From contig JAEUJN010000022.1 in the NCBI GenBank assembly GCA_016794595.1, positions 1-64,000 on the forward strand: 64,000 nt of DNA. Reading direction: 5' to 3'. The position numbers and the translations under genes are program-made. Shown one piece after another: positions 50,665-61,634 of the stretch (position 1 is the first letter of the stretch; each line of letters starts with the position of its first letter). The notes under the pieces are model-generated. The model was not told where the DNA came from. It made no database searches and was given only the letters and a program-made list of their open reading frames with translations. The DNA is from Kineosporiaceae bacterium. Lineage in GTDB: Bacteria; Actinomycetota; Actinomycetes; Actinomycetales; Kineosporiaceae.

Positions 50665-51090
50665 ATGGCCTCTCGCGTCACCCCGTGCCCGGACTGTGGC
50701 ACCAAGAACCGGGTCCCGGTCGGCTCGGCCGGTCGCCCGCGCTGCGCCTCCTGTCACGCCGATCTGCCCTGGCTGGTCGATGCCACGGACGCCGAGCTGG
50801 CCTCGGCCCTGTCCACCTCGCAGTTGGTGCTGGTCGATCTGTGGGCGCCCTGGTGCGGACCGTGCCGGATGGTCGCCCCGGTACTCGAGCGGCTCGCCGT
50901 CCGCTACGCCGGCCAGGTCAAGGTGGTCAAGGTCAACGTGGACGACAACCCGCTGGCGGCCCGGCGGTTCGGGGCCAGCAGCATCCCCACCCTGGCCTTC
51001 GTGCGCGACGACGAGACCGTGGGGCGGATCGTCGGCGCCCAGCCGGAACCCGTTCTCGTGCAGCGGATCAACGCGCTGCTGGCAGGCTGA
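50665..51090 (+). CDS. Thioredoxin with N-terminal zinc ribbon (TrxC/Trx2 type)
   Basis: A 141-aa protein. An N-terminal zinc ribbon (Cys8, Cys11, Cys27, Cys30) is followed by a thioredoxin fold with redox-active Cys64-Gly-Pro-Cys67 in APWCGPC and cis-Pro in SSIPTLAFV. The ribbon-plus-Trx layout is that of E. coli Trx2, which is oxidative-stress-linked. The stop codon abuts the convergent aminotransferase stop with no gap. Confidence 0.94.
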   Translation: MASRVTPCPDCGTKNRVPVGSAGRPRCASCHADLPWLVDATDAELASALSTSQLVLVDLWAPWCGPCRMVAPVLERLAVRYAGQVKVVKVNVDDNPLAARRFGASSIPTLAFVRDDETVGRIVGAQPEPVLVQRINALLAG

Positions 51091-52398
51091 TCAGGCAGCT
51101 GCCAGGCAGGCGGTGATCGCCTCGTCGATGATGCTCACGGCGAGGTCGATCTCCTCGTGGGTGACGGTGAGCGGCGGCGCCATCCGGAAGCAGTTGGTCT
51201 GCGACCCGTCGCCCTTGACGATGTTCATCGACAACCCGCGCCGCAGGCACTCCTCGGTCACCGCCGCCCCGAGCGCGTTGGCCGGGGCCTTGGAGTCGGC
51301 GTCGGTGATCAGCTCGAGGCCCACCAGGAGTCCGCGACCGCGGACGTCGCCGATCTGCTCGTGCCGCCTCGCCAGCTCCCACAACGCGTCCGTCAGGTAG
51401 ACCCCCATGACCTGTGCCCGGGCCGCGAGATCGTCCTGTTCGAGGGCGTCGAGTACGGCCAGTCCGACCGTGGCCAGCATCGGGTCGTTGACGTGAGTGG
51501 TGATGTGCAGCATGCCTGCGTCCACACACGCCTGCTCGATCGCGGCCGAGGTGACGGTGGCGCCCACGGGAACACCCCCGCCCAGGGTCTTGGACATGGT
51601 CAGGAAGTCCGGCACCACGCCCTCGGCGATCGAGGCGAACAGGGCACCGGTGCGGCCCAGACCGGTCTGGGCCTCGTCGACGATCAGTGCCATGCCGCGC
51701 CGCTCGCACTGCTGTTTCGCCTGTGCCAGGTATCCCTCCGGCAACGGGATCACCCCACCGGTGGACAGCACGGGTTCGACGATCATGGCCGCCGGTGAGC
51801 CGACGGTCTGGGCATCGACCATCTCGAAACCCAGTCGCAGACAGGCCAGTTCACAGGTGTCGCGCCGCATCGCCAGCGGACAGCGGTAGCAGTACGGCGC
51901 CGGGACGGCATACGAGCCGGGCATCAGCGGGCCGTTCCCCTTGTGGCCCATGGAGAACGTGACCGAGTTGGTGCCCGCGAGCAACCCGTGGAAGCTGCGG
52001 GTCAGGCCGACGACCTCGAAGCCGCCGGTGAACACCTTGGCCATCCGCAGCGCGAACTCGTTGGTCTCCGAACCGGTGCTGAGCACGATGGTGCGATCGA
52101 GCGGGTCGGGCAGCAGCTCGGCCAGGCGGCGCGCCAGCTCGAGCACGTCCTCGTGCAGCATCCAGGAGTTCAGGTGGACGGCGGTGCGCATCGAGCGCTC
52201 GATCGCCTCCAGCACCCGCGGGTGGTTGTGCCCGAGCGTGGAACTGATCTGCCCCGAGGTGAAGTCGAGCACCCGGCGTCCGTCGGTGGTGAACACCCAC
52301 GACCCCTCGGCCCGCTCGACCACGAACGGGGCGAAGGAGCCGGCGTACCGGATCAGGTACTGCTCTCGCGGGTCGCCCGAACTCGTTGCCACACCCAT
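51091..52398 (-). CDS. Class III PLP-dependent aminotransferase
   Basis: A 435-aa fold-type I enzyme. It has STGSETNEFALRMAK near residue 107 binding the PLP phosphate, IVDEAQTGLGRTG near 237 holding the pyridine-binding Asp, and the Schiff-base Lys in LTMSKTLGGGVPVGA near 268. The mid-loop PYCYRCPLAMRRDTCELACL is rich in Cys. Class III covers omega-amino acid, acetylornithine and dialkylglycine enzymes; GABA transamination would fit GabD2 encoded at 25 kb, but the genes are not linked. Substrate uncertain. Confidence 0.85.
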   Translation of the reverse strand: MGVATSSGDPREQYLIRYAGSFAPFVVERAEGSWVFTTDGRRVLDFTSGQISSTLGHNHPRVLEAIERSMRTAVHLNSWMLHEDVLELARRLAELLPDPLDRTIVLSTGSETNEFALRMAKVFTGGFEVVGLTRSFHGLLAGTNSVTFSMGHKGNGPLMPGSYAVPAPYCYRCPLAMRRDTCELACLRLGFEMVDAQTVGSPAAMIVEPVLSTGGVIPLPEGYLAQAKQQCERRGMALIVDEAQTGLGRTGALFASIAEGVVPDFLTMSKTLGGGVPVGATVTSAAIEQACVDAGMLHITTHVNDPMLATVGLAVLDALEQDDLAARAQVMGVYLTDALWELARRHEQIGDVRGRGLLVGLELITDADSKAPANALGAAVTEECLRRGLSMNIVKGDGSQTNCFRMAPPLTVTHEEIDLAVSIIDEAITACLAAA

Positions 52399-52992: not shown

Positions 52993-53907
52993 CTACTCGG
53001 GCACCTGTACCCCCGACGGCCCACTCGACGTCCCGTTCCGGGCCTCGCGGGGGGCGCCGACCCGGTCCCAGATCCGTGACCGCTCGGCCACCGTCCAGGA
53101 CTCGGTGGTCAGGCCGAACTCGTCGGCGAGGATGGCGAACCACTCCGACGGCGAGGCCACGGACCGCTCGTGGCGCCCCGCGGAGTCGACGGTGTAGCGA
53201 ACCCGCCCGAGCAGTCCCTCGACCCGGTCGGCCTCGCGCCGCATGACGTGCAGGGTCCGGGTGAACCCCGAGGTGGGCGACGTGGACAGCTCCACGTGCC
53301 GGGGGACGAAGGCGCTCATCGACGCCGGGGTGAGCTCGAAGGTCATGTCGCAGAACGACCTCTGGGCCGGATCGTGCACCAGGCGCCACCGCCCGCCGCC
53401 CAGGTCGATCAGCTCGTAGGTGAACGGCCCCTGGCCGAACCTCCCGGGGCGCAGCGGGACCGGTGCGTGCAGCAGGTCACCGAGCCCGCAGTCCGCCAGC
53501 CAGGTCAGCCCCTCCAGGCTCACCGTGAGCACGAGGTGGTTGCCGAGCGCGGCCTCGACGTCCTGCTCCGGGGTGCCCCGAACCCCTCCGCGATGCCGGC
53601 GGACGTCGAAGCCGAGCGCCGCGAGCAGCGCCGCCAGGGCTCCGTTGTGGTGATAGCAGTAGCCGCCGCCCCCGGTCACGAACCTCCTCGCCGCCTGGAC
53701 CGGGTCGATCCCCGGGGGTCGCCCGGCGTAGGTGTCCAGGTACTCGTAGGCGATCCGCTCGACCTGGGCAGTGTGGACGGCGCGCAGCAGCTGGGCCGTG
53801 GGCGGGCCCGGTGGAACCCCCAGCCTGGCGAGGTAGGCAGTGACCAGGTCCGCAGGCAGCGGCACCACCTGCGCGCCGTCCGGGTCGATTCGAGGGGGCC
53901 CTTCCAC
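52993..53907 (-). CDS. Arylamine N-acetyltransferase
   Basis: A 304-aa NAT with the Cys-His-Asp triad: Cys84 in GGYCYHHN, His124 in GNHLVL and Asp139 in LADCGLGD. It transfers acetyl or propionyl groups from CoA to arylamines and hydrazines. Two positions differ from the usual RGGYCFEHN (Arg to Gly, Glu to His), so substrate preference may differ. It is convergent with the DinB gene. In mycobacteria nat lies with cholesterol-catabolism genes; none are seen here. Confidence 0.9.
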   Translation of the reverse strand: MEGPPRIDPDGAQVVPLPADLVTAYLARLGVPPGPPTAQLLRAVHTAQVERIAYEYLDTYAGRPPGIDPVQAARRFVTGGGGYCYHHNGALAALLAALGFDVRRHRGGVRGTPEQDVEAALGNHLVLTVSLEGLTWLADCGLGDLLHAPVPLRPGRFGQGPFTYELIDLGGGRWRLVHDPAQRSFCDMTFELTPASMSAFVPRHVELSTSPTSGFTRTLHVMRREADRVEGLLGRVRYTVDSAGRHERSVASPSEWFAILADEFGLTTESWTVAERSRIWDRVGAPREARNGTSSGPSGVQVPE

Positions 53908-54024: not shown

Positions 54025-54150
54025 GTGGTCACGGTCAAGAGCGCCAGCGACAAGCCCCGGCTCGCTGGCCGGCAACCCTCCTCCGCGGTGGGGTGCTCCG
54101 GGTGACGACCAGGTCCGCATCATGACCGGTGCGGGCAAGCGCGGACCCGC
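54025..54150 (+). ncRNA. SAM-IV riboswitch
   Basis: The aptamer core is easy to follow: P1 from GGTC (54027-54030) and GACC (54107-54110); P2 from CCAGCG (54044-54049) and CGCTGG (54063-54068), followed by the conserved CCGGCAACCCTCC; P3 from CCCTCC with GGTGGGG (54087-54093); and GCCCCGG (54054-54060) with CCGGG (54098-54102) for the pseudoknot. SAM-IV is an actinobacterial relative of SAM-I. Downstream stems GGTCCGC/GCGGACC (54112-54118, 54141-54147) and CCCGCT-GCG-AGCGGG end near the ribosome binding site, suggesting translational control. Confidence 0.88.
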
Positions 54151-54185
54151 TGCGAGCGGGCCCCTGGCTCCTCGGGAGTGCTCCG

Positions 54186-55532
54186 ATGTCCGTCACCACC
54201 CTCCCCTCGTCTGCCACGCTGTCCCCCACGTCCTCCCCGGTGGCCACGGTCTGCGACGACCTGCTCGTGCCCACCCTCAACGGGCCGGTCGACTTCGCCA
54301 ACCTGGACCACGCGGCGTCCACCCCCGCCCTGGCCGCCGTCAAGGATGCGGTGGACCGCACCCTGCGCACCTACTCCTCGGTGCACCGCGGCAACGGCTA
54401 CGCCAGCAGGGTGACCAGCCGGTGGTACGAGCTCGCCCGAGCCGAGATCGCCGCCTTCGTCGGTGCCCGCCGGGACGACAGCGTGATCTTCACCCGCACC
54501 ACCACCGACTCCTGGGCCCTGCTCGCCCACGCCCTGCCCGCCCACACCGCGGTGTTCGTCTTCGCCACCGAGCACCACTCGACCCTGCTGCCCTGGGGCG
54601 AGCACCGCACCGTCACCCTGCCCATCCCGGGATGCGTCCCCGAGGCCCTGGGCACGCTGGAGGCCGCCCTGGCCGCCGACGCCGCAACGTCCGGCTCGCA
54701 GCACCGGCTGGTCGTCCTGTGCGGCGCCTCGAACGTCACCGGCGAGATCTGGCCGATCGAGCGCTTCGTCCGGGTGGCCCGCCGGTACGGCGCCCGGGTG
54801 GCCGTGGACGCCGCCCAGCTCGCCCCGCACCGCCGGATCGACCTGGCCGAGGCGGACGTCGACTACGTCGCGTTCTCCGGCCACAAGCTGTACGCCCCCT
54901 TCGGCACCGGCGTGCTCGCCGGGCGGGCCGACTGGCTGGACGCCGCAGCCCCCTACCTGGTCGGCGGCGGCGCGACCTCGCAGGTCCGGCCGGGCGCTGG
55001 AGCGCCCCGCGCGACCTGGGCGGCCGGCGCCGCCCGGCACGAGGGCGGCAGCCCGAACGTGATCGGCGCCGTGGCTCTGGCCGCCGCCTGTTCCACGCTG
55101 CGCCGTCACTGGTCGGCCGTCGAACGGTACGAGGCCACCCTGACCGCCAGGCTCCGTGAGGGACTGGAGGCGATCCCCGGAGTGCGCACGTGGTCGATCT
55201 TCGACCGGGACAGCGTCGACCGGGTGGGAGTGGTGGCCTTCACGGTGGCCGGCCTGGACTCCGGTGACGTCTCGGCGACCTTGTCCTTCGAGCACGGGAT
55301 CGGGGTGCGGGACGGCAAGTTCTGTGCCCACCTGCTCACCGACCACCTGCTCGCCGCCGTCCCGCAGGGCACCGCCGTGCGCGCGAGCGTCGGCCTCGCC
55401 ACCACGACCGAGCATGTCGAGCGACTGATCGCGGCCGTGGCGGAGCTGGCGGAGCGCGTGCGACGCGACCCCGCCGGCTGGGTCCCGCCGGCCGACCCCG
55501 GCGCCGAGCTGGAGGCTCCCCGGCCCTGGTGA
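54186..55532 (+). CDS. Class V aminotransferase (cysteine desulfurase-like), SAM-IV-controlled
   Basis: A 448-aa fold-type I PLP enzyme. PLP-stacking His131 lies in EHHSTLLPW, Asp208 in VAVDAAQLAP, and Schiff-base Lys234 in SGHKLYAPFG. The overall pattern (NLDHAASTPAL start, RTTTDSWALLAHAL) is near SufS/Csd-type desulfurases, but no obvious catalytic Cys loop is seen near the expected position. The ATG at 54186 has GGGAG upstream, which lies in the riboswitch expression platform. Control by S-adenosylmethionine suggests a role in sulfur amino acid supply or recycling. No Suf or Isc gene is nearby. Confidence 0.87.
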   Translation: MSVTTLPSSATLSPTSSPVATVCDDLLVPTLNGPVDFANLDHAASTPALAAVKDAVDRTLRTYSSVHRGNGYASRVTSRWYELARAEIAAFVGARRDDSVIFTRTTTDSWALLAHALPAHTAVFVFATEHHSTLLPWGEHRTVTLPIPGCVPEALGTLEAALAADAATSGSQHRLVVLCGASNVTGEIWPIERFVRVARRYGARVAVDAAQLAPHRRIDLAEADVDYVAFSGHKLYAPFGTGVLAGRADWLDAAAPYLVGGGATSQVRPGAGAPRATWAAGAARHEGGSPNVIGAVALAAACSTLRRHWSAVERYEATLTARLREGLEAIPGVRTWSIFDRDSVDRVGVVAFTVAGLDSGDVSATLSFEHGIGVRDGKFCAHLLTDHLLAAVPQGTAVRASVGLATTTEHVERLIAAVAELAERVRRDPAGWVPPADPGAELEAPRPW

Positions 55533-58690: not shown

Positions 58691-59749
58691 TCACGAGCGC
58701 ACGGCGGTCACCGGCATGGCCGAGTCCACCCCCAGGCCGAGCTCGGACGGCGCCCGCCCGGCGGCCACCAGCAGCGAACCCAGCGCGGCCACCATGGCCC
58801 CGTTGTCGGTGCACAGGGCCGGCCGGGGCACGCGCAGCCGGATCCCGGAGTCGGCGCACCGCTCGAGCGCCAGGGCCCGCAGGCGAGAGTTGGCGGCCAC
58901 GCCGCCCCCGATCAGCAGGGTGTCGACACCCTGCTCGCGGCAGGCGAGCACCGCCTTGCGGGTCAGGACGTCGACCACCGCCTCCTGGAACGAGGCGGCC
59001 ACCGCCGGCACGTCGACCCGCTCACCGGCGTCCTCGCGTCGCTCCACCCAGCGAGCCACCGACGTCTTGAGCCCCGAGAACGACACGTCGTAGCGGTGAC
59101 GCTCGAGGTCGCGACCGGAGGTGAGCCCGCGCGGGAACGCGATCGCCGAGCGCACCCCCTCGCCGCGCTCGGCGACGGCCTCGGCCGCCGCCCGGTCGAT
59201 GTGCGGCCCTCCGGGGAAGGGCAGGCCGAGCAGCCGGGCGATCTTGTCGAACGCCTCGCCGGCCGCGTCGTCGATGGTGCGCCCGAGCGGGGTCACCGTG
59301 GAGGTGACGTCCTCGACCAGCAGCAGGGACGAGTGCCCGCCCGAGACCAGCAACGCCATGGTCGGCTCGGGCAGCGGCCCGTGGTCGAGGGTGTCCACCG
59401 CGACGTGCGCCGCGAGGTGGTTCACCCCGAACAGCGGCACGCCCAGCCCCAGCGCGAGCGCCTTGGCCGCGGCCACACCGACGGTGAGGGCGCCCACCAG
59501 ACCCGGTCCCGAGGTGACCGCGATCGCATCCAGGTCGGCCAGGCGCACCCCGGCACCGGCGCAGGCCCGTTCGATCGTCGGCACCATCGCCTCCAGGTGG
59601 GCGCGGCTGGCCACTTCGGGCACCACGCCCCCGAAGCGGGCGTGTTCGTCCACCGAGCTGGCCACGGCGTCGATCAGCAACCTGCCGTCACGGACCAGTG
59701 CGACCCCGGTCTCGTCGCACGAGGTCTCGATCCCCAGCACCAGGCTCAT
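58691..59749 (-). CDS. tsaD: tRNA N6-adenosine threonylcarbamoyltransferase TsaD
   Basis: A 352-aa enzyme with the ASKHA fold. It has the start [19 protein letters not shown], metal-binding His111 and His115 (HLAAH), SGGHSSLLL near residue 145 and [11 protein letters not shown] near 268. It transfers the threonylcarbamoyl group to A37 of ANN-decoding tRNAs. The ATG follows GGAGG and overlaps the rimI stop (ATGA), whereas the longer frame lies inside rimI. Confidence 0.98.
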
Positions 59750-60261
59750 GCCGATCCTCCCGACGTGCTCGGCACCGGGCGCCGCATCACCCAGGCATCG
59801 CCCCCGTGCGGGGCGTAGTAGCCGCGGCGCACCGAGATCCGCTCGAAGCCGAACCGGCGGTACAGGGCGATTGCCGGCTCGTTGGCCGAGTCCACCTCGA
59901 GCAGCACCGATCGCGCCCGGCGGCGGGCCGCCTCGCCGAGCAGGTCGCCCAGCAGCCTGGCCCCCAGCCCACGACCCCGAGCGGACGGCGCCACCGCCAC
60001 CGTCTGCACATCCCCCTGGCGGTCGTTGACCATCAGTCCGGCATAGCCGAGCAGCCGCTGGCCGCCGATGCCCTGATCTTCGGTTGCGCTGACGTACCAC
60101 CGGGTCTCGGGCCGGGCGAGCTCGGACCAGAAGGTCTCCGCGCTCCAGGCCGTGCCCCCGAACAGGTCCCGCTCCAGCTGGGCCGCCGCGTCGATCTGCC
60201 ACCAGCGCATCCTGCCGATGACGACGCCGCCGGTGTCCTCCGCGGCCCCCAGGGCCTCCAT
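59746..60261 (-). CDS. rimI: Ribosomal-protein-alanine N-acetyltransferase-like RimI
   Basis: A 171-aa GNAT with acetyl-CoA loop [15 protein letters not shown] near residue 75 and the end motif [24 protein letters not shown]. RimI acetylates the N-terminal Ala of ribosomal protein S18, and related proteins modify others. The ATG at 60261 shares one base with the tsaB stop (TGATG); the longer frame runs within tsaB. Confidence 0.93.
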
Positions 60262-61016
60262 CACGACACTCGCTTGCGGGCCCCGGGCGCCACGGCATCC
60301 GGACGACGCAGGTACAGCGGCACGGGTTCCTGGCCCCGAGCGCGCTCGCTGCCTCCGACCCGGGCCACCCGCCGGCCGGCCAGCCGGGCCACCGCACCGG
60401 CCCGGACGTCGAGCGGCGCCCCCTCCGGGGGTGCGGTCAGCACCTCCGGGTAGAGCGCGGCACCGCGCCCGAAGAACGGCCCGAACCCCTTCTGCCCCAA
60501 GCCGTCCCGCGCTGCCGCCGAGGCCAGGTCGGCCGGACGGTCCACCCCCGGGCCGCGCACCGGCTCCGGCTCGCCGTCCCCCGTGCGGTAGGCAGCCCAG
60601 TACACCTCGCGCCGCCGGGCATCCGAGGTGACCACGAACTCCCTCCCCGCAGCGAGATCCCCCGCACCAGCCGCGGACCCGGCGCTCCCCTCGCCCCACT
60701 CGGCCACCTGCAGGGCCAGGGCATCCAGCGAACACACCCCGATCACCGGCACGCCCAGCACCAGGCCGAGCACCCGGGCGGTGACCACCCCGACCCGCAG
60801 CCCGGTGAACGGGCCGGGCCCCACCCCGACCGCCACCGCGGACACCTCGTCGATCGCACGGCCTGCCTCGACCAGCACGGCGGCGATCATCGGCGCGAGA
60901 TGCTCGGCATGACGAGCGGCCAGCTCCACCGCCTGCTCGGCCAGCAACGAGTCACCGTCCGCCGCCGCCACCGTGACCAGGGCCCCGGAGGTGTCCACGG
61001 CCAGGAGCAGGCTCAC
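60261..61016 (-). CDS. tsaB: tRNA threonylcarbamoyladenosine biosynthesis protein TsaB
   Basis: A 251-aa TsaD paralogue without metal-binding His residues. It has LLLAVDTSG at the start, HAEHLAPMI near residue 35 and [18 protein letters not shown] near 63. It scaffolds the TsaB-TsaD-TsaE complex. Start GTG 61016 overlaps the tsaE stop by 4 bp. A Gly/Ala insertion ([11 protein letters not shown] near 115) is longer than usual. Confidence 0.96.
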
Positions 61017-61573
61017 CCGACCGAGGTGGGGAAGCTGACGCCGTCCCACCGGGCGCCGTAACCGGAGATGGTCACGTACCGGTTCTCGTCGCCGTCCGTG
61101 GGCGCCTCGTCGGCGCCGCCGTCGGCGTCCCCGCGGGGACGGCGGATCAGCACCTCCAGCCGGTCGGGGGCCAGGTCCTCGACCAGCCCCTCACCCCACT
61201 CGACCACGGTCACCGACCGGTCCAGCGAGGCGTCCAGGTCCAGGTCGTCCACCTCGGCCAGAGAGGTCAGCCGGTAGGCATCGACGTGGACCAGATCGGG
61301 TCCCTCGCCCAGCGAGGGGTGCACCCTGGCGATCACGAAGGTGGGGCTGCTGATCAGCTCGCGCACCCCGAGTCCGGTGCCGATGCCCTGGGTGAGCGTG
61401 GTCTTGCCCGCCCCCAGGTCACCGGTCAGCACCGCCAGGTCGCCGGACCGCAGCAGCAGCGCCAGCCGCGCGCCCAGGATGCGCATGGCCTCCGCTGTCG
61501 GCACCACCAGATTGGCTCGTGCGGTGGGCGCGGCCTTCTCCTCGGCCTGCTTCGCACGATGCGCTCCGGACAC
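61013..61573 (-). CDS. tsaE: tRNA threonylcarbamoyladenosine biosynthesis ATPase TsaE
   Basis: A 186-aa P-loop ATPase with Walker A GDLGAGKTTL at 51-60, SSPTFVI near 74 and HVDAYRL near 95. It drives turnover of the TsaBD complex. The GTG at 61573 sits behind an excellent AGGAGG; the ATG at 61633 is rejected for weak context. An acidic Asp/Gly-rich loop (RGDADGGADEAPTDGDE near 150-166) is a lineage-specific insertion. Confidence 0.96.
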   Translation of the reverse strand: MSGAHRAKQAEEKAAPTARANLVVPTAEAMRILGARLALLLRSGDLAVLTGDLGAGKTTLTQGIGTGLGVRELISSPTFVIARVHPSLGEGPDLVHVDAYRLTSLAEVDDLDLDASLDRSVTVVEWGEGLVEDLAPDRLEVLIRRPRGDADGGADEAPTDGDENRYVTISGYGARWDGVSFPTSVG

Positions 61574-61634
61574 GCCACCTCCTGGGGGAACCCCGCACAC
61601 GGCTCTCGCCTCACACCTCTGCTCGTGCCGCATC

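What the first reader, a model, noticed from the sequence alone, without database searches (positions are those of the whole stretch)
54025..55532. Isolated class V aminotransferase under a SAM-IV riboswitch
SAM-IV normally controls methionine or SAM synthesis and sulfur-amino-acid genes. Here it precedes a single class V enzyme with Schiff-base Lys234 but no evident desulfurase Cys loop, and no other sulfur gene nearby. The enzyme may thus be an unrecognised step of methionine or sulfur recycling.
Basis: partly seen in the sequence, partly recalled or inferred. Interest (0 to 1): 0.65.

Follow-up and report, generated by a model that had tools for sequence, protein, structure and literature searches.

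The report
SAM-IV riboswitch controlling a desulfurase-like enzyme
A SAM-sensing RNA switch precedes an enzyme that looks like a cysteine desulfurase (it takes sulfur off cysteine); the pairing is widespread in actinobacteria and already reported in Streptomyces, but what the enzyme does for methionine synthesis has, as far as I found, not been tested.

Summary
The SAM-IV riboswitch is real (54033-54147, 113.6 bits) and precedes a class V PLP enzyme (ATG 54186, stop 55532). The AlphaFold model is closest to SufS (Z about 44). The enzyme forms a clade apart from the genome's own SufS, so it is most likely a dedicated SufS-like cysteine desulfurase, not a new enzyme class. The riboswitch link is not accidental: SAM-IV lies directly upstream in 78 of 78 testable relatives and in 17 of 17 sampled genomes that hold both. 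The genome's only other SAM-IV precedes metY. Best reading: SAM-repressed mobilisation of cysteine sulfur for homocysteine and methionine. The pairing is published for S. lividans and S. clavuligerus. One point stays open: in one large-genome genus (probably Streptomyces) the enzyme is near-universal (118/121) while canonical MetY is not (32/121), and S. coelicolor is reported to lack metA and metXY. The enzyme is a testable candidate for a missing homocysteine step there.

The parts
54033..54147 (+). SAM-IV riboswitch aptamer (RF00634)
   Evidence: cmscan 113.6 bits, E 3.2e-20, model 1-116 of 116; session model R1 120.7 bits
54148..54185 (+). 38-nt leader between aptamer and start codon; candidate expression platform with GGGAG Shine-Dalgarno-like sequence; mechanism not resolved
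   Evidence: sequence; folding and complementarity tests inconclusive
54186..55532 (+). SufS-like class V PLP enzyme, 448 aa, probable group II cysteine desulfurase (Lys234, Cys380, His130, Arg399)
   Evidence: Pfam Aminotran_5 245 bits; SufS alignment; invariant residues; AlphaFold model and PDB fold match
55323..55325 (+). codon of Cys380, aligned with the SufS persulfide-forming cysteine

Best explanation
A SAM-responsive SAM-IV riboswitch turns down a dedicated SufS-like (group II) cysteine desulfurase when SAM is plentiful. When SAM is low, the enzyme forms a PLP aldimine with L-cysteine, takes the sulfur onto Cys380 as a persulfide and releases alanine. The sulfur (persulfide, or sulfide after reduction) then feeds homocysteine formation, through MetY where MetY exists, and so methionine and SAM. 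Shown: the aptamer, the conserved gene coupling, the catalytic residues, the SufS fold (predicted model), and the shared SAM-IV control with metY. Inferred: SAM binding, off-switch polarity, desulfurase activity, and the acceptor.
For: Aptamer at 113.6 bits. Cys380, Lys234, His130, His233, Asp208, Gln211, Arg375 and Arg399 invariant in 102/102 sequences. Alignment of Cys380 with the SufS catalytic Cys. AlphaFold model pLDDT 90, best solved matches SufS/CsdB, Z about 44, rmsd 2.0 over 383 residues. SAM-IV directly upstream in 78/78 loci with enough upstream sequence, in 17/17 sampled genomes that have both, and in 10 of 12 further loci. SAM-IV elsewhere precedes MetY (the window's genome and others) and a MetX-like gene. 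SAM-IV/metY and SAM-IV/class V sit 1.8 kb apart in L053. The genome has its own SufS and two IscS-like paralogs, and the family is a separate clade at 100/98 support, so Fe-S supply is presumably covered by others. Published leaders: S. lividans SAM-IV before a 'cysteine desulfurase' (PMC8079986); S. clavuligerus with premature transcripts at the SAM-IV leader (PMC8269248).
Against: The protein scores well below the SufS model's cut-off (244 against 475 bits), and the residues before the Cys are KF, not HH, so substrate or product may differ. In 5 of 8 sampled genomes of the genus of G023 the enzyme and SAM-IV occur without canonical MetY, MetX or MetA, so MetY cannot be the general acceptor. 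No SufE/SufU-like partner gene was identified nearby. Four homologs carry no SAM-IV.
Confidence: 0.68

Rival explanations
1. The enzyme is the sulfur-transfer component of a MetX/MetY-independent homocysteine route: its Cys380 persulfide is passed, directly or through a partner, to a homoserine-derived or aspartate-semialdehyde-derived acceptor. It would be the main route in genomes without metA/metX/metY and a parallel route elsewhere.
For: In the genus of G023 the enzyme is in 118/121 genomes and canonical MetY in 32/121. MetX occurs only where MetY does in the eight sampled genomes of that genus, and MetA in none of them. A review states that S. [quoted passage not shown]
Against: MetB/CGL-type enzymes are present in those genomes, so transsulfuration with an undetected homoserine-activating enzyme is possible. 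No dedicated acceptor enzyme was found. The known aspartate-semialdehyde route protein (HcyBio, PF01837) is absent in 20/20 genomes.
Confidence: 0.18
2. The enzyme is a cysteine or cystine C-S lyase, selenocysteine lyase or other class V PLP enzyme that degrades or recycles a sulfur amino acid, with Cys380 not forming a persulfide.
For: It fails the SufS NCBIfam cut-off and the loop differs from SufS; class V enzymes are functionally diverse.
Against: Cys380 is invariant, and the set of SufS catalytic residues is kept. SAM repression fits a biosynthetic role better than a degradative one.
Confidence: 0.1
3. The gene is an ordinary Fe-S cluster SufS paralog placed under SAM control because radical-SAM or Fe-S enzymes use SAM; the link to methionine is indirect.
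For: SufS fold and residues.
Against: The genome already has a canonical SufS with GHHCAQP (L134). The tree separates the two. SAM-IV neighbours are methionine-synthesis genes.
Confidence: 0.04

Closest known systems
SAM-IV riboswitch upstream of SLIV_26975, annotated cysteine desulfurase (S. lividans, PMC8079986)
   Same: Same riboswitch class, same kind of gene, direct upstream position.
   Different: Only annotated there; I did not hold that sequence and did not align it. The longer aptamer-to-gene distance in large-genome relatives contrasts with 38 nt here.
SAM-IV leader of CRV15_21540, class V PLP enzyme (S. clavuligerus, PMC8269248)
   Same: SAM-IV before a class V-fold PLP enzyme.
   Different: RNA-seq there shows premature transcripts at the leader; here no expression data, and the short leader leaves the mechanism open.
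SufS/CsdA group II cysteine desulfurases (for example B. subtilis, E. coli and M. tuberculosis SufS)
   Same: Fold (Z about 44), PLP Lys, persulfide Cys, active-site His and Arg positions.
   Different: About 25-32% identity, RDGKFCAH in place of the RxGHHCAQP-type loop, scores half of the SufS family cut-off, SAM-IV control, no SUF operon context.
O-acetylhomoserine sulfhydrylase MetY under SAM-IV
   Same: Same regulatory RNA in the same genome; would be the natural user of the released sulfur.
   Different: Different enzyme; absent from many genomes that keep the class V enzyme.

Membership tests
SAM-IV riboswitch (RF00634) | Match above the curated score over the whole model | tested here: met
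   113.6 bits against 38, model 1-116 of 116
SAM-IV riboswitch (RF00634) | Binds SAM | not testable with these tools
   needs in-line probing or ITC
SAM-IV riboswitch (RF00634) | Lies in the 5' leader of a sulfur or methionine gene and controls it | tested here: inconclusive
   Position met; control not measured; structure of the expression platform unresolved
Group II cysteine desulfurase (SufS/CsdA-like) | Class V PLP fold with Schiff-base lysine | tested here: met
   Aminotran_5 245 bits; Lys234 invariant 102/102; SufS fold of the predicted model
Group II cysteine desulfurase (SufS/CsdA-like) | Persulfide cysteine in the RxGxxC loop, with active-site His and substrate Arg | tested here: met
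   Cys380, His130, Arg375, Arg399 invariant 102/102; aligned with the SufS loop
Group II cysteine desulfurase (SufS/CsdA-like) | L-cysteine to L-alanine plus sulfur activity | not testable with these tools
   needs enzyme assay
SufS family proper (NCBIfam TIGR01979) | Score above curated cut-off | tested here: not met
   243.9 bits against 475.1
SufS family proper (NCBIfam TIGR01979) | Clusters with the genome's canonical SufS | tested here: not met
   Separate clade, 100/98 support
Ergothioneine EgtE lyase (TIGR04343) | Score above curated cut-off | tested here: not met
   46.7 bits against 400

The most novel reading that the evidence does not exclude
In actinobacteria that lack metA, metX and metY, this SAM-IV-controlled desulfurase is the committed sulfur-transfer enzyme of an undescribed homocysteine pathway, which would answer how strains such as S. 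coelicolor make methionine.
Probability: 0.17. Interest if true: 0.8.

Novelty: new member of a known kind. Interest (0 to 1): 0.42.

Why it matters
The SAM-IV/desulfurase pairing is on record, in what I could read, only as gene annotation and RNA-seq; I found no functional study of the enzyme in the open papers searched. The comparison here shows that the coupling is near-perfect across several actinobacterial families and that the enzyme is core in a genus where the textbook homocysteine enzymes are mostly missing. That makes the poorly explained methionine pathway of such organisms testable with one deletion.

Tried and rejected
A shared operon partner: ORFs near 19 relatives and the window gave no family attached to the enzyme across genera beyond regional synteny; many of the apparent hits were shadow ORFs overlapping the enzyme. 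Expression platform: minimum-energy folds and complementarity counts gave at most a weak excess of anti-P1 pairing (mean helix 5.0 against 4.0 in shuffles) and no excess of Shine-Dalgarno sequestration (4.1 against 4.2), so I do not claim a translational switch. Rv3778c of M. tuberculosis: a review calls it non-catalytic because it lacks the PLP lysine (PMC12910592), so it is not a working equivalent; I did not test whether it is a decayed member. Aspartate-semialdehyde route HcyBio: absent. EgtE: rejected on score. First aptamer alignment A1 mixed strands and was discarded for A2. A Pfam check of other SAM-IV-linked genes failed on coordinates and was not repeated, so the MetX-like label of L130 rests on a MetX model hit at the same place in that genome.

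Full report
Observation. Rfam finds one riboswitch in the window, SAM-IV at 54033-54147 on the plus strand, 113.6 bits against a cut-off of 38. The next gene starts at ATG 54186, behind a GGGAG Shine-Dalgarno-like sequence, and ends at 55532. It is a class V PLP enzyme, Aminotran_5 at 245 bits, with Lys234 as the Schiff-base lysine. The gene upstream (52993-53907) runs the other way and is an N-acetyltransferase; the next downstream ORF on the same strand starts 101 bases after the stop, so co-transcription is not excluded.

The missing cysteine is not missing. phmmer against solved structures ranks SufS-type desulfurases first and aligns VRDGKFCAHLL with VRSGHHCAQPL, the loop of the catalytic cysteine (Nfs2 C384S, SufS C361A and C364A are among the solved mutants listed). 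In 102 aligned sequences, the window and 101 homologs from two searches, Cys380, Lys234, His130, His233, Asp208, Gln211, Arg375 and Arg399 are invariant. One of the six search patterns contained the motif, so that set is not blind to it; but the 21 other-genome hits came from a whole-protein search and all keep the cysteine too. The AlphaFold model (pLDDT 90) matches SufS structures best: Z 44.2, rmsd 2.0 over 383 residues, 25% identity.

It is not the genome's SufS. NCBIfam SufS scores 244 bits against a cut-off of 475. The genome holds a canonical SufS (VRVGHHCAQPV, L134), two IscS-like proteins and other class V members on other contigs. In a tree, 25 sequences form a clade with 100/98 support apart from SufS; one weaker hit, L104 (GHHCAMP), falls with SufS and should not be counted as a family member.

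The riboswitch coupling. With a covariance model built from 29 aptamers, SAM-IV was found directly upstream in 78 of the 80 named homolog loci; the two without (L033, L065) hold only about 75 bases upstream of the match. In a 296-genome sample of the phylum, 22 genomes have a protein match and 26 have SAM-IV; all 17 that have both have them adjacent. In the other five no SAM-IV was found anywhere in the genome, and no Rfam family was found near their genes. Ten of 12 further loci in the genus of G023 also carry it.

What else SAM-IV controls. The only other SAM-IV of this genome, at G000:C42, lies before metY (TIGR01326 at 674.8 bits). In the sampled loci the downstream genes are mostly class V and MetY, with a few MetY-like relatives and one that coincides with a MetX hit; a handful were not identified. 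In L053, SAM-IV/metY and SAM-IV/class V lie about 1.8 kb apart on one strand. The genome also has MetA. This supports a common purpose: sulfur for homocysteine.

How it probably works. Low SAM relieves the riboswitch; the desulfurase takes sulfur from cysteine onto Cys380; the sulfur is used for homocysteine. The first half is inferred from the riboswitch class, the second from residues, fold and regulon. Whether control here is by transcription or translation is open: published S. clavuligerus RNA-seq shows premature transcripts at the SAM-IV leader of such a gene (PMC8269248), while the 38-nt leader here leaves little room for a terminator, and my folding tests did not show Shine-Dalgarno sequestration above chance.

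The loose end. MetY is not a constant companion. Of eight members in the phylum sample, five lack MetX, MetY and MetA. A review says that S. [quoted passage not shown] MetB/CGL-like enzymes are present, so conventional transsulfuration with an unknown activating enzyme remains possible. HcyBio is absent.

Known or new. The SAM-IV/cysteine desulfurase pairing is in print for S. lividans (PMC8079986) and S. clavuligerus. Nine literature searches found no functional study, but most subscription papers, Weinberg 2008 among them, are not held. I therefore file it as a new member of a known kind with an unresolved pathway role.

Noticed in passing
G284:C4:54011-58314 (also G284:C1, C2): Five weaker SAM-IV matches (45-60 bits) in one genome, three of them within 4.3 kb on one strand of one contig.
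   Followed up: no
genus of G023, genomes G366 and G377: Two and three copies of the class V enzyme in one genome; in G366 the better-scoring copy (L158) has no SAM-IV within the 1.5 kb held.
   Followed up: partly
G225, G268 (L103, L098): Homologs with the invariant Cys in genomes of the same order in which no SAM-IV was found; how they are regulated is unknown.
   Followed up: partly
window 58691-61633: A minus-strand cluster whose ORFs read as tsaD, rimI, tsaB and tsaE (t6A tRNA modification), judged by sequence only.
   Followed up: no
window 50665-51090: Small thioredoxin-like ORF with a CPDC...CASC metal-binding-like N-terminus and a WCGPC motif, 3 kb upstream; judged by sequence only.
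   Followed up: no
window 51091-52398: Class III aminotransferase (283 bits) on the minus strand; matches many subfamilies but none at its cut-off among those shown.
   Followed up: no
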